DNA of 64,000 nt from Mycolicibacterium brumae (lineage in GTDB: Bacteria > Actinomycetota > Actinomycetes > Mycobacteriales > Mycobacteriaceae): contig NZ_CP104302.1 in NCBI RefSeq assembly GCF_025215495.1, forward strand, positions 868,001 to 932,000, given 5' to 3'. Each line of letters opens with the position of its first letter. Within the stretch, counting starts at the first letter, position 1. A program made the translations under genes and the position numbers. Shown here in pieces: positions 38,101-51,323 of the stretch. A model generated the notes under the pieces. That model had not been told where the DNA came from, searched no databases, and saw nothing but the letters and a program-made list of their open reading frames with translations.

Positions 38101-39245
38101 GCGCGCCCGTCCCTAATCGCACCGCCTCCCTCACCGGCATCCGGGCGCTGGCCGCGCTGCTCGTCGTGGCCACCCACGCCGCGTACACGACGGGCCACTA
38201 CACCCCGGATTACTGGGGATTGATGGCGTCGCGGATGGAGATCGGCGTGCCGATCTTCTTCGCGCTGTCCGGGTATCTGCTGTTTCGGCCGTGGGTCAAG
38301 TCGGCGGCCACCGGCGGCCCCGAGCCGTCGCTGCGCCGCTACGCCTGGCACCGGTTCCGGCGGATCATGCCGGCCTACGTCGTCGTCGTGCTGGCCGCCT
38401 ACGTCGTCTACCACTTCCGCACCGATGTGCAGCCCAACCCCGGCCACCATTGGGTCGGGCTGCTGCGGAACCTGACGATGACCCAGATCTACACCGACAA
38501 CTACATGTACTCCTATCTGCATCAGGGGCTGACGCAGATGTGGAGCCTGGCGGTGGAGGTCGGTTTCTATATCCTGCTGCCGGCGATCGCGTACCTGCTG
38601 TTGGTGCTGCTGTGCCGCCGGGAGTGGCGGCCGTACCGGCTGCTCGGCGGTATTTTCGCGCTGATGCTGGTCTCACCGGCCTGGATCGTGTTCTTCCACT
38701 CGGTGGACTGGCTGCCGGATTCGGCGCGGCTGTGGCCGCCGACGTACCTGATCTGGTTCCTGGGCGGGATGACGCTGACGGTGCTGGCCCAGATGGGGGA
38801 GCGGGCCTACGGATTCCTGGCCATCCCGCTGGCGGTGCTGTGCTTCCTCATCGTCTCCACCCCGATCGCCGGGGAGCCGACGACTTCGCCCAAGGAGCTC
38901 TACGAGGCGCTGTTCAAGACCATCTTCTACACCATCATCGCGGTGCTGCTGCTGGCTCCGCTGGCGCTGGGCAACCGCGGTTGGTACGCGACGCTGATGG
39001 GCAGCCGACCGATGGTGTGGGTCGGCGAGATCTCCTATGAGATCTTCCTGGTGCACCTGATCCTGATGGAAATCGCGATGGTCGAGATCATGCACCAGCC
39101 GGTGTACTCCGGCTCCGGGATCGAGCTGTTCTTCTGGACCATGGTGTTGACGATTCCGGTGTCCTGGCTGCTGCACCGACTCACCCGGGTGCGCGACGAG
39201 CCGCCGGCCACGGCTGCGCCTGCGGCGCGGCCCGCCTCGGCCTGA
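38097..39245 (+). CDS. Acyltransferase-3 (OafA/YrhL-like) membrane protein (Rv1254-like)
   Basis: 382 aa. An integral-membrane O-acyltransferase with about ten hydrophobic segments. The family-3 N-terminus is present (SLTGIRALAALLVVATHAAY, with the catalytic-type His in THA), then IFFALSGYLLFRPW, HRFRRIMPAYVVVVLAAY and MWSLAVEVGFYILLP. It transfers an acyl group to a carbohydrate or lipid acceptor at the envelope; the target is unknown. The GTG start overlaps the deaD stop (GTGA), giving translational coupling. A dispersed repeat follows the stop. Confidence 0.88.
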   Translation: MSAPVPNRTASLTGIRALAALLVVATHAAYTTGHYTPDYWGLMASRMEIGVPIFFALSGYLLFRPWVKSAATGGPEPSLRRYAWHRFRRIMPAYVVVVLAAYVVYHFRTDVQPNPGHHWVGLLRNLTMTQIYTDNYMYSYLHQGLTQMWSLAVEVGFYILLPAIAYLLLVLLCRREWRPYRLLGGIFALMLVSPAWIVFFHSVDWLPDSARLWPPTYLIWFLGGMTLTVLAQMGERAYGFLAIPLAVLCFLIVSTPIAGEPTTSPKELYEALFKTIFYTIIAVLLLAPLALGNRGWYATLMGSRPMVWVGEISYEIFLVHLILMEIAMVEIMHQPVYSGSGIELFFWTMVLTIPVSWLLHRLTRVRDEPPATAAPAARPASA

Positions 39246-39249
39246 CTCC

Positions 39250-39330
39250 ATCGATTGAGCTCTCACGTGCGTCCGTGATTTCTCAAACGGCTCCGTGACG
39301 TCTCAGTCGATGGGCCACCCCAACACCCCG
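39250..39330. repeat. Partial copy of the GTGAG/TCTCA phased repeat
   Basis: TCTCA occurs at 39261, 39281 and 39301, exactly 20 bp apart. The last copy continues into GTCGATGGGCCACCCC. A single direct ATTGAG sits at 39254-39259. The three-unit block aligns well with 49381-49443 in the large array (TCTCAAACG, CTCA-TCGATG and CCACCCC shared at the same spacing). It lies between the acyltransferase and the iron-regulated gene. Confidence 0.75.
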
Positions 39331-47912: not shown

Positions 47913-48443
47913 GTGACCGTCGGGAAGGCGCTGGCCGTCGCGGCGCTGGCCGTGCTGCCGATGATCGCGGCGTGCTCGCCGGACAATTCCGGCGGTGAGG
48001 ACCCCGGATCCGGGCCGGCCGAGGAACAAACCGAGATGCAGTCCGGTCCGATGTTCCCCGAATGCGGCGGCGTCAGCGACGAGACCGTCGGGCAGCTCAC
48101 CGAGGTGGCCGGCCTGGTCAACACCGCCAAGACCTCCGTCGGCTGCCAGTGGCTGCAGGGCGGCGGCATCCTCGGCCCGCACTTCTCCTTCAGCTGGTTC
48201 CGCAACAGCCCGATCGGGCGGGAACGCAAGACCGAAGAACTGTCGCGCGACAGCGTCGAAGACATCACCATCGAGGGCTACGACGGGTTCATCGCGATCG
48301 GCGGCACCAGCCTGTGCGAGATCGGCATCCAGTTCGACGACGACTTCATCGAGTGGTCGGTCAGCTTCGCCGCCGAACCATTCCCCGACCCCTGCGAAGT
48401 GGCGAAAGAACTGACCGCACAATCGATTCGGAACTCGCAATGA
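47913..48443 (+). CDS. lprB: LprB-like DUF3558 lipoprotein
   Basis: 176 aa. The signal peptide ends MIAAC (Cys near residue 20). The DUF3558-type body has the Cys pattern PECGGVSD, VGCQWLQGG and SLCEIGI and a mixed alpha/beta makeup. Lipid-anchored, extracytoplasmic; function unknown. The GTG at 47913 is preferred because the frame upstream to 47814 has no signal-peptide logic. It overlaps the following lipoprotein gene by 4 bp. The pair matches H37Rv lprB-lprC (Rv1274-Rv1275) as recalled. Confidence 0.82.
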   Translation: MTVGKALAVAALAVLPMIAACSPDNSGGEDPGSGPAEEQTEMQSGPMFPECGGVSDETVGQLTEVAGLVNTAKTSVGCQWLQGGGILGPHFSFSWFRNSPIGRERKTEELSRDSVEDITIEGYDGFIAIGGTSLCEIGIQFDDDFIEWSVSFAAEPFPDPCEVAKELTAQSIRNSQ

Positions 48444-49012
48444 GCGCCTCGCAGACGACCCGCCCGAGCGCGGGCAAGAAGATCGCCGTCGGGGCGGCCG
48501 TCGTGCTGTCGGCCGCCGCCCTGGTCACCGGCTGCACCCGCGCGGTGGACGGAACCGCGAACAAGGCAGGCGCCGGGCCGCGGAACAACACCGCCGAGGA
48601 GACCTACCCGAACCTGCTCAAAGAGTGCGATGTGCTGACCTCCGACGTGCTGGCCACCTCGGTCGAAGCCGACCCGCTGAACATCATGAGCACCTTCGTC
48701 GGCGCGATCTGCCGCTGGCAGGCGCTGAACAACAGCGGCGTGCTGATCGACATCACCCGGTTCTGGTTCGAGCAGGGCAACCTGGACCACGAGCAGGACG
48801 TCGCCGACTTCCTGAACTATCAGGTCGAATCGCGTTCGGTGGCCGGGGTCGCCTCGATCGTCATGCGCCCCAATGACCCCAATGGTTCCTGCGGTGTCGC
48901 CAGCGACGCCGGCGGCGTGGTCGGCTGGTGGGTCAGCCCGCAGGCGCCGGGCGTGGACGCGTGCGCGCAGGCGCTCAAGCTGATGGAGCTCACCCTCCAG
49001 ACCTCCGCCTGA
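48440..49012 (+). CDS. lprC: LprC-like DUF3558 lipoprotein
   Basis: 190 aa. Signal peptide with lipobox LVTGC (Cys near residue 32), then a DUF3558-type domain with LLKECDVLTSDVLATS, GAICRWQALNNSG and NGSCGVASDAGGVVGWWV. It is probably a diverged tandem paralogue of lprB, and their 4-bp overlap implies co-expression. The final Ala codon and TGA fall inside the first unit of a 56-bp tandem repeat. Confidence 0.82.
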   Translation: MSASQTTRPSAGKKIAVGAAVVLSAAALVTGCTRAVDGTANKAGAGPRNNTAEETYPNLLKECDVLTSDVLATSVEADPLNIMSTFVGAICRWQALNNSGVLIDITRFWFEQGNLDHEQDVADFLNYQVESRSVAGVASIVMRPNDPNGSCGVASDAGGVVGWWVSPQAPGVDACAQALKLMELTLQTSA

Positions 49013-49150
49013 CTCGACGAGCCGAGGAACGAGGCGAGGAAGAGGTCAGGCGCGTCAGCACCGCCTGACTCGACGAGCCGAGGAACGAGGCGAGGAAGAG
49101 GTCAGGCGCGTCAGCACCGCCTGACTCGACGAGCAAGCGAGGAACGAGCG
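49005..49150 (+). repeat. 56-bp tandem repeat that includes the lprC stop codon
   Basis: Units start CCGCCTGACTCGACGAGC at 49005, 49061 and 49117. The first two look identical over 56 bp and the third decays after about 18 bp. The first unit contains the last codon and stop of lprC. The core (GAGGAACGAG...CGAGGAAGAGG) recurs once at 20879-20911. Confidence 0.9.
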
Positions 49151-49180
49151 CGCGACGCGTTCCTGGTCGAGGGTCACCGC

Positions 49181-49481
49181 ATTGAGTGAGACCTCTTGGA
49201 CGTCAGTGAGACGTGAGGGCGGGGGCGCTCATCGAGTGAGGAACCAGGTACGTCAGTGAGACGTCAGGGATGCGAGTGAGACACCAGGGCGGCGTTCTGC
49301 ATCGAGTGAGAATCTAGGGACACGTTGTTCGAGTAACCCCCACCCGTATGTCTCACTCAATGAAGCTCACCGCCCTCACGTCTCACCGAGCTACCTCAGT
49401 TCTCAAACGCCTACCTGACGCCTCACTCGATGAACCACCCCGCCACCAGCTCTCACAAGCCGCCACAGGTTCTCACTCGAT
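49181..49481. repeat. 300-bp mirrored array of phased GTGAG motifs (long imperfect palindrome)
   Basis: GTGAG occurs at 49186, 49206, 49236, 49256, 49276 and 49306. The inverted partners (CTCAC, once CTCAA) start at 49352, 49382, 49402, 49422, 49452 and 49472. Each pair is symmetric about 49331 with no net offset, and every spacing is 20 or 30 bp. The outer motifs are extended (ATYGAGTGAG and its complement). Hand comparison gives about 65% arm identity over 140 bp. The array lies between the convergent lprC and SixA-like genes. No gene is present between 49013 and 49535. Confidence 0.85.
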
Positions 49482-49535
49482 GCGCCGGCGATGCGCCGAC
49501 GACCCTCCGGCCGGCTTCTGCCGATTCAGGAGGCC

Positions 49536-50066
49536 TCAGCGGGGGATGTGGAAGCCGACCAGGGCGGCCGAGTGCGGCTCCAGGGCGGACCATTCACCGG
49601 TGAAGCGCAGCACCGCCATGGCCGAGGTCGGGTACTTCACCGTGATCCGGTCGACCGCCGCCGCGCTGGTGCCGGGAGCGCCGGACAGGATCAGCGCCAC
49701 TGAGCTCATCGCTGGTTCGTGCCCGACGACCAGCAGGGTCTGCGGGTCACCGCCGAGGGCGTCGGCGTCGAGTTCATTGATCACCTGGATCACCGCGCCG
49801 GGGCCGGCGCCGTAGAGCTCGTCGACGAACTCCACCGGAGCGGCGACGCCGGTTCGTTCCAGCGTCTGCCGCGTTCGGGTGGCCGTCGAACAGAGCACGC
49901 CCTGAACCGGCGGGTGCGGTCCGGCGGGCGAGCGCAGCCAATCGCCGGCCAGTCCGGCTTCCCGGATCCCCCGCGCGGCCAGCGGCCGCTGGTGGTCGGG
50001 CACCCCGATCGGGTAGTCCGACTTGGCGTGCCGCAGCAGGACGAGGGTGCGTTGTTGGTCGCTCAC
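49536..50066 (-). CDS. SixA-like histidine phosphatase (Rv1276c-like)
   Basis: 176 aa. Histidine phosphatase signature LVLLRHAKSDYP (RHA at about 12-14), the second catalytic His in LLVVGHEPAMSS, and CSTATRTRQTLERTG between them. It resembles SixA phosphohistidine phosphatases; the substrate is unknown. The GTG at 50066 starts the protein just before the catalytic strand; frames further upstream are antisense to the promoter of the nuclease gene. Confidence 0.88.
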   Translation of the reverse strand: MSDQQRTLVLLRHAKSDYPIGVPDHQRPLAARGIREAGLAGDWLRSPAGPHPPVQGVLCSTATRTRQTLERTGVAAPVEFVDELYGAGPGAVIQVINELDADALGGDPQTLLVVGHEPAMSSVALILSGAPGTSAAAVDRITVKYPTSAMAVLRFTGEWSALEPHSAALVGFHIPR

Positions 50067-50171
50067 CCGGTCAGGGTAGACGGCGCCGGGGCGCGGCACC
50101 CGGGACTTGTCGGTATGGAGTTTTAGACTCGCCAGGCAAGTGAAACAGATCAGCCAGGGGAGGGACGGCAC

Positions 50172-51323
50172 GTGACGCGGTTTCTGCACACCGCCGACTG
50201 GCAACTCGGCATGACCAGGCATTTCCTGGCCGGAGAGGCGCAGCCCCGGTACTCCGCGGCCCGCCGCGACGTGGTCGCCGGACTGGGCGCGCTGGCCGCG
50301 CAGACCGGCGCCGAGTTCATCGTCGTCTCCGGCGACGTGTTCGAGTCCAACCAGCTCGACGCGAGCGTGGTGAGCAAGTCGTTGGAGGCTATCCGCGGCA
50401 TCGGCGTGCCGGTGTATCTGCTGCCCGGCAACCACGATCCGCTGGACGCCGCGTCGGTGTACACCAGCGGGCTGTTCAGCGCCGAACGCCCGGACAATGT
50501 CACCGTTCTGGACCGCAGCGGGGTGTTCGAGGTGCGGCCGGGCCTGCAGATCGTCGCCGCGCCGTGGCGCTCCAAGCGCCCCACCGCGGACCTAGCCGCC
50601 GCGGCGCTGGCCGGTCTGCCCGACGAGCCGGCGGTGCGGATCCTGGTGGCCCACGGTGGGGTGGACCGGCTCGACCCCGATCCGAACAACCCGGCGCTGA
50701 TCCGGCTCGGCCCGCTCGAAGACGCGCTGTCCCGCGGCGACATCCACTACGTTGCGTTGGGGGACAAGCACTCCCGCACTCGGGTCGGTGACAGTGGCCG
50801 GGTTTGGTACTCGGGCGCCCCCGAGGTGACCAACTTCGACGACATCGAACCCGATCCCGGGCACGTGCTGCTGGTCGATGTCGATGACGACGATCCGGCT
50901 CATCCGGTGGCGGTGACCAACCACCGGGTGGGATCGTGGCGGTTCATCACCCTGCGCCGCGAGATGGACGGTGTCCGCGATATCACCGACCTCGGCATCG
51001 AGCTCGACAATCTGGCGGACAAGGAACGTACGGTGGTGCGCCTGGAGCTGACCGGCACCCTCGGTGTCAGCGAGCGCGCCGACCTCGACGATCTGGTGTA
51101 CCGCCGCGGTCGGTTGTTCGCCTGGTTGGACCTGTGGGACACGCACTGCGATCTGGCGGTGCTGCCGGCCGACGGGGAGTTCTCCGACCTCGGATTCGGC
51201 GGGTTCGCGGTTGACGCGGTCGATGAGCTGGTCGCCACCGCGCGCTCCGGTGACCCGGCGGCCGCGCACACCGCCCAGGGCGCGTTGGCGCTGCTGCTCC
51301 GGCTGGCCAAGGGCGCGGCGTGA
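50172..51323 (+). CDS. SbcD/Mre11-like DNA exonuclease (Rv1277-like)
   Basis: 383 aa calcineurin-like metallophosphoesterase. The metal motifs are in order: FLHTADWQLGM, VSGDVFESN, LPGNHDPLD, LVAHGGVDR and ALGDKHSRT. The last is GDKH where SbcD usually has GHxH, a small variant. It is followed by a capping domain and by the SMC-like ATPase gene 10 bp downstream, so the pair probably forms an SbcCD-like repair complex separate from canonical sbcCD. The start is GTG at 50172 after a strong GGGGAGGG. Confidence 0.9.
   Translation: MTRFLHTADWQLGMTRHFLAGEAQPRYSAARRDVVAGLGALAAQTGAEFIVVSGDVFESNQLDASVVSKSLEAIRGIGVPVYLLPGNHDPLDAASVYTSGLFSAERPDNVTVLDRSGVFEVRPGLQIVAAPWRSKRPTADLAAAALAGLPDEPAVRILVAHGGVDRLDPDPNNPALIRLGPLEDALSRGDIHYVALGDKHSRTRVGDSGRVWYSGAPEVTNFDDIEPDPGHVLLVDVDDDDPAHPVAVTNHRVGSWRFITLRREMDGVRDITDLGIELDNLADKERTVVRLELTGTLGVSERADLDDLVYRRGRLFAWLDLWDTHCDLAVLPADGEFSDLGFGGFAVDAVDELVATARSGDPAAAHTAQGALALLLRLAKGAA

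What the first reader, a model, noticed from the sequence alone, without database searches (positions are those of the whole stretch)
49181..49481. Mirrored, helically phased array of GTGAG motifs forming a 300-bp imperfect palindrome
Six GTGAG motifs are followed by six inverted partners. The spacings are 20-30-20-20-30 bp on the left and 30-20-20-30-20 on the right, and every pair is exactly symmetric about 49331. All twelve motifs therefore fall near the same DNA face, with no net indel between the arms, while the sequence between motifs is only moderately conserved. That pattern suggests selection on motif position. It could be a cooperative protein-binding array, a nucleoid or segregation site, a structured RNA between convergent genes, or a non-autonomous mobile element. 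It matches no element class I know.
Basis: seen in the sequence. Interest (0 to 1): 0.85.

Follow-up and report, generated by a model that had tools for sequence, protein, structure and literature searches.

The report
Palindrome array of a selfish nuclease
The mirrored 300-bp array is real and repeated around this mycobacterial chromosome, and it looks like the gene-less relative of a widespread, apparently undescribed mobile unit in which a homing-type nuclease gene is bracketed by 63-bp palindromes.

Summary
In detail: a mirrored GTGAG array on an exact 20/30-bp lattice, 11 of 12 motifs perfect. It is one of 27 loci in this genome and there are 11 in relative G410; strong full-length matches were confined to these 2 of 396 genus genomes. 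Its core is homologous to a 63-bp palindrome (23-bp arm, 17-bp asymmetric centre, 23-bp arm) present in other mycobacteria. Such palindromes bracket, in direct orientation, genes for a 280-aa protein family: 64 of 79 loci against 1 of 72 distal controls. The protein joins an AbiEi-like DNA-binding part to a nuclease domain resembling homing endonuclease I-Bth0305I. One spacer is empty, solo-palindrome or full in different genomes. The window site is near-empty in 9 of 12 relatives, 3 unresolved. Arms do not covary, which speaks against a structured RNA. Best reading: a non-autonomous, amplified target-site array of a homing-like nuclease system. Binding, cleavage and movement are inferred. Nine searches of open-access papers found no description; subscription papers and bioRxiv were not covered.

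The parts
49180..49482 (+). The whole mirrored array (outer ends CATTGAGTGAG ... CTCACTCGATG)
   Evidence: Sequence; repeat search; genome copies
49186..49310 (+). Left arm: six GTGAG half-sites at steps 20, 30, 20, 20, 30
   Evidence: lattice statistics over 31 arrays
49300..49362 (+). Core: 63-bp palindrome with asymmetric centre (ACACGTTGTTCGAGTAACC), homologous to the simple element of other mycobacteria
   Evidence: Model R2, built without any G000 or G410 sequence, hits 49293-49369 with 57.7 bits, E 2.2e-14; positions 8-70 of the 77-position model are the dyad
49352..49476 (-). Right arm: five CTCAC and one CTCAA at steps 30, 20, 20, 30, 20
39242..39319 (+). A second, short element of the same family in the window, without extended arms
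   Evidence: R2 24.4 bits, E 6.8e-5; sequence
48062..49012 (+). Open frame that ends just upstream (its end resembles mycobacterial lipoprotein LprC; name recalled, start uncertain)
49536..50435 (-). Open frame that ends just downstream, convergent (resembles a SixA-type phosphatase; name recalled, start uncertain)

Best explanation
The array is a non-autonomous, intergenic copy of the recognition sequence of a homing-like nuclease system. The autonomous unit in Mycobacterium is palindrome - gene of about 280 codons - palindrome. Each palindrome is about 63 bp: two 23-bp inverted arms around a 17-bp asymmetric centre. Proposed mechanism: two protein molecules bind the mirrored arms with their AbiEi-like winged-helix parts, and their homing-type nuclease domains meet over the centre and cut there. 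Repair from a palindrome-nuclease-palindrome copy would turn a solo site into a full one; recombination between the two direct palindromes would turn a full site back into a solo one. In the lineage of this genome and G410 the arms have gained further half-sites outwards, kept on a 20/30-bp lattice because half-sites must lie in helical phase to be occupied together. Shown: anatomy, copies, lattice, flanking of the nuclease, fold similarity, three site states at one spacer, lack of the array at the window site in relatives. Inferred: binding, cleavage, homing, the reason for the lattice. Not explained: how solo copies reach new places.
For: 27 loci in this genome, 11 in G410. Core recognised by a model built only from 27 simple palindromes of other genomes. 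Direct palindrome repeats bracket the nuclease gene in 64 of 79 named loci against 1 of 72 distal controls, 16 of 38 regions and 11 of 16 further genus loci; these sets overlap in part. Palindrome similarity follows protein identity across 1448 pairs of loci in different contexts (Mantel 0.44, 0 of 500 permutations). In 110 of 128 palindromes scored, complementarity runs from 9 to 31 bp from the centre and drops sharply on both sides. Protein: AbiEi profile E 7e-11; confident model, pLDDT 94, pTM 0.89; Foldseek hits 1zel Rv2827c (E 3.7e-4) and 3r3p I-Bth0305I catalytic domain (E 0.034, probability 1.00, TM 0.71 by target length); E181 36 of 36, D214, H231 and D241 each 35 of 36; dN/dS 0.12-0.28 in 6 of 6 pairs. 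Array lies at the end of the nuclease gene in G410, and at the orthologous place here behind an inserted transposase-like gene. Empty, solo and full states at one spacer. Published AbiEi proteins bind 23-bp inverted repeats 3 or 13 bp apart (PMC7319586, passages) and I-Bth0305I dimerises on nearly 60 bp (PMC3943268, passages).
Against: No biochemistry. The Pfam nuclease families match below their cut-offs, and the I-Bth0305I fold match has only a modest E-value. In G000 and G410 an array flanks the nuclease on the 3' side only; no array was seen upstream, and in a tree the two nucleases form their own branch (support 1.0) whose next node holds 34 members at support 0.77. No insertion footprint or target duplication could be established. 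A classical homing gene interrupts its own target; here the target stands on both sides, so self-cutting must be avoided somehow. 22 of 38 and 15 of 79 nuclease loci did not pass the flank test. One other nuclease of this genome has flanking palindromes of which only 2 weak fragments occur elsewhere, so not every unit has a dispersed family. Full-length relatives were not seen in plasmids or phages, so the route between cells is unknown.
Confidence: 0.6

Rival explanations
1. REP/RAYT-like dispersal: the palindromes are copied as single-stranded hairpins by another enzyme, and the nuclease only uses them as operators or is a passenger.
For: Many short dispersed palindromes with one associated gene is the REPtron layout (PMC6006769, passages). 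The 5' palindrome ends a median 55 bp before the gene match, where an operator could lie.
Against: The 3' palindrome (median 5 bp after the gene match) is not explained by an operator role. The gene is a PD-(D/E)xK/Vsr-type nuclease by fold, not an HUH enzyme. I did not search this genome for a RAYT.
Confidence: 0.2
2. An ordinary miniature transposon (MITE) moved by a standard transposase, with the lattice as its transposase-binding sites.
For: Inverted ends, many copies, change of place between relatives.
Against: No target-site duplication seen (inconclusive). The gene bracketed by homologous palindromes is a nuclease, and the repeats around it are direct copies of a palindrome rather than one inverted pair. 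Arm length varies by whole units.
Confidence: 0.08
3. A host protein-binding array (nucleoid, segregation or regulation) unrelated to mobility.
For: Position of motifs is conserved while much of the spacer sequence varies.
Against: 2 of 27 array sites match an array site in G410; the window site is near-empty in 9 of 12 relatives; strong matches in 2 of 396 genomes.
Confidence: 0.07
4. A structured RNA or a two-way transcription terminator between convergent genes.
For: Single strands fold strongly (z -8.6 and -10.1), and this copy lies between convergent genes. The simple 63-bp elements do exceed shuffles in pairing and covariation (81.8% against 77.8%; 0.206 against 0.140).
Against: In 19 arrays pairing is 68.1% against 68.7% shuffled, spacers alone 53.4% against 55.0%. 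No Rfam match in the window. Terminators would not be expected upstream of the nuclease gene as well.
Confidence: 0.05

Closest known systems
EDxHD (Vsr-like) homing endonucleases, type I-Bth0305I
   Same: Similar catalytic-domain fold and conserved E, D, H, D residues (mapping to the EDxHD motif is mine); a long target of about 60 bp bound by a dimer (PMC3943268, passages)
   Different: DNA-binding part is AbiEi-like; gene is bracketed by two copies of a palindrome instead of splitting its target; dispersed solo palindromes and arrays
REPtrons (TnpA-REP/RAYT with REP palindromes)
   Same: A gene flanked by palindromes whose relatives are dispersed between genes (PMC6006769, passages)
   Different: Nuclease of another fold and chemistry; palindromes of 63 bp with an asymmetric centre; units occur at different places with their own palindromes
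AbiEi antitoxins, e.g. Rv2827c, and their operators
   Same: Similar N-terminal parts; operators are 23-bp inverted repeats 3 or 13 bp apart (PMC7319586, passages)
   Different: Nuclease domain at the C-terminus; I did not look for a partner toxin gene; palindromes on both sides and dispersed
Stem-loop family Myt-1 of M. tuberculosis (2008 survey)
   Same: 72-bp structured repeat, 75 copies, in a mycobacterium (PMC2267715, table passages)
   Different: Its sequence was not seen here, so identity is open; no nuclease link in the passages read

Membership tests
Homing endonuclease element (EDxHD type) | Vsr/EDxHD nuclease domain | tested here: met
   Fold match to 3r3p (E 0.034, probability 1.00) and nearly invariant E181, D214, H231, D241; modest E-value, residues not superposed
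Homing endonuclease element (EDxHD type) | Cuts an allele that lacks the gene, at a long specific site | not testable with these tools
   Needs biochemistry
Homing endonuclease element (EDxHD type) | The gene interrupts its own target | tested here: not met
   Complete palindromes stand on both sides in 64 of 79 loci
Homing endonuclease element (EDxHD type) | Presence and absence at one locus in related genomes | tested here: met
   RDD/DUF4191 spacer: 5 full, 2 solo, 4 short empty, 12 other or unresolved, of 23 genomes
REPtron (RAYT with REP) | HUH/Y1 transposase | tested here: not met
   Profiles and fold of the associated protein show AbiEi-like plus nuclease parts
REPtron (RAYT with REP) | Palindromes flank the gene and are dispersed | tested here: met
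   for a second nuclease of this genome dispersal was not found
MITE | Target-site duplication and matching ends of an autonomous transposon | tested here: inconclusive
   Two reciprocal empty sites too diverged to place the junctions
Structured RNA | Compensatory changes between the arms of the arrays | tested here: not met
   Observed equals shuffled in 19 arrays

The most novel reading that the evidence does not exclude
A new class of chromosomal mobile element: a one-gene unit in which an AbiEi-like DNA-binding part fused to a homing-type nuclease is bracketed by two direct copies of its own 63-bp dimer target. Solo targets spread through intergenic DNA as a REP-like family, several different nuclease/palindrome pairs coexist in one genome, and in one lineage the target has grown into a phased array of about a dozen half-sites.
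Probability: 0.55. Interest if true: 0.9.

Novelty: new variant of a known kind. Interest (0 to 1): 0.82.

Why it matters
It would explain many palindromic repeats and multi-copy 'DUF559/AbiEi-like' genes of mycobacteria by one selfish system, tie homing endonucleases to REP-like repeat families, and offer many natural nuclease/target pairs for studying how DNA specificity changes. The arrays make it directly testable why half-sites are kept in helical phase.

Tried and rejected
RNA reading: folding, Rfam, covariation. Nucleoid or segregation site: places not conserved. Target-site duplications: sought at two reciprocal empty sites, inconclusive. Dispersal of a second nuclease's palindrome (L121) here: the source plus 2 weak fragments. 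Plasmids and phages: 2 and 1 partial matches, none covering 80% of the query; one 'plasmid' record is 11.85 Mb long. A TAL-effector hit in the PDB sequence search rests on ten tiny matches and was discarded. Outside the genus 3 of 11 testable loci were flagged: L286 is low-complexity, L289 partial, L291 a clear palindrome pair. Literature: searches (open-access PMC papers) showed nothing that links such a nuclease with flanking palindromes; for five papers I saw passages (PMC2267715, PMC6582537, PMC10117815, PMC7319586, PMC3943268) and for PMC6006769 too; the original I-Bth0305I paper is not held. The notebook's entries 7 and 9 hold two miscounts (18 of 38 should be 16 of 38; 12 of 16 should be 11 of 16).

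Full report
What is there. Window 49180-49482 holds the described lattice: GTGAG at steps 20, 30, 20, 20, 30, a centre, and mirror partners at 30, 20, 20, 30, 20, one of which reads CTCAA. Chance does not give this. 'Same face' holds for neighbours; at exactly 10 bp per step the outermost motifs drift.

It is a family. BLAST in the own genome (3,988,920 bp, one contig) finds 62 matching pieces, both strands counted, the best other copies at 91-92% identity. A sequence-only model from 19 aligned copies gives 27 loci here and 11 in G410. Of 396 genus genomes 36 had a match at E <= 0.01, with stricter filters and few candidates scored per genome; matches below 1e-20 were confined to G000 and G410, the next best being 1.2e-7. 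In the 19 copies 52 of 159 columns are invariant. Arms differ by whole units, and one copy has a 50-bp unit in tandem; that copy is split by a transposase-like gene (IS256 type is recalled). Over 31 arrays 267 of 370 gaps are exactly 20 or 30 bp. Some copies (L026, L027, L030, L031, L034) have another centre and were not among the 31.

The weak matches in other genomes are a simpler element. It is a palindrome of rigid spacing. Twenty-seven of them, none from G000 or G410, align without gaps in 77 columns. Pairing over the dyad is 81.8%, against 77.8% after shuffling partners among sequences and 30-40% when partners are slid. A model of these 27 has matches at E <= 0.01 in 14 of 15 genomes, 5 to 37 rows each, none in G002 (rows often count both strands of one site, and the printed list was cut).

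The nuclease. In G277 two such palindromes about 960 bp apart enclose a 281-aa gene. Homologs occur in 12 of 12 genomes searched, 2 to 15 matches each. Of 20 homolog regions, 8 have an R2 palindrome next to the gene, and some others have palindromes of other sequence. Comparing 5' with 3' flanks, 16 of 38 regions show significant direct repeats. In 80 named loci from one scan, capped at the best 80, 79 could be tested and 64 pass a score of 22, against 1 of 72 distal controls. Of 16 further genus loci 11 pass. Palindrome similarity follows protein identity between loci in different contexts (Mantel 0.44, 0 of 500 permutations, 64 loci, 1448 pairs). In 110 of 128 flanking palindromes that could be scored, complementarity is high from 9 to 31 bp either side of the centre and near background inside 7 and beyond 31, that is about 23-17-23, median span 61 bp; the centre was chosen to maximise complementarity, so the sharp edges carry more weight than the heights. 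Where the centre's direction could be read on both sides, 22 of 27 pairs run one way with the gene, 1 the other way, and 4 disagree. Fifty-two of the 110 have CTCG or CGAG in the centre, so the centre is shared by part of the subfamilies only.

The protein. PADLOC's AbiEi profiles match the N-terminal two thirds (E 7e-11); Pfam's DUF559 and MTES_1575 match the C-terminus below cut-off in nearly all proteins tried; by sequence, PDB entry 3hrl, an endonuclease-like protein, matches residues 210-276 (E 0.0044). The AlphaFold model is confident; Foldseek ranks Rv2827c (1zel) first and finds the I-Bth0305I catalytic domain (3r3p) fourth. Four acidic or histidine residues are nearly invariant. dN/dS is 0.12-0.28 in 6 pairs by a simple count. 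Relatives at E <= 1e-15 occur in 96 of 296 genomes of the class.

Link to the window array. In G410 the nearest nuclease ends where an array begins; at the orthologous place here a transposase-like gene (IS110 type, recalled) lies between nuclease and array. The array cores are hit by the model of the simple palindromes. Against a simple picture, an array stands only on the 3' side in both genomes, and the two nucleases form their own branch in the tree.

Mobility. The window spacer is 0-31 bp in 9 of 12 relatives; G002, G016 and G022 were not resolved. Two of 27 array sites have an array at the matching place in G410. At the RDD/DUF4191 spacer 23 genomes give 5 full units, 2 solo R2 palindromes, 3 with another palindrome by eye, 1 with another palindrome and a 40%-identical nuclease, 4 spacers of 11-38 bp without element, and 8 other or unresolved.

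Mechanism. AbiEi-type antitoxins bind 23-bp inverted repeats 3 or 13 bp apart (PMC7319586, passages), and I-Bth0305I is said to dimerise on nearly 60 bp (PMC3943268, passages). A 23-17-23 palindrome is what a dimer joining these two parts would be expected to bind, nuclease domains over the asymmetric centre. This is inference from geometry. That the array arms do not covary while motif positions are fixed suggests that each arm is read as double-stranded sequence. How solo elements enter new places is not explained.

Where this stands. That the array belongs to a palindrome family tied to the nuclease is well supported; the homing mechanism is a proposal. Novelty is rated against homing endonucleases and REPtrons, whose tested defining features it meets only in part. 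Whether it has been described could be checked only in open-access papers.

Noticed in passing
window 49005-49148: A 56-bp tandem repeat (2.5 copies) stands beside the array in the same spacer; related stretches occur at several other places in G410 and a few in other genomes.
   Followed up: partly
L026, L027, L030, L031, L034 (G000): Some arrays share a different centre (TGGAACGTGGTGGCG ... GTGTTCCAC), perhaps a separate subfamily.
   Followed up: no
L314 (G000:C1:1422862-1423433): The RDD/DUF4191 spacer of this genome holds another tandem repeat, over 500 bp, unrelated to the array by eye.
   Followed up: no
L017 (G000:C1:2693806-2695753): One array is split by a transposase-like gene of about 450 codons.
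   Followed up: partly
   Followed up: no
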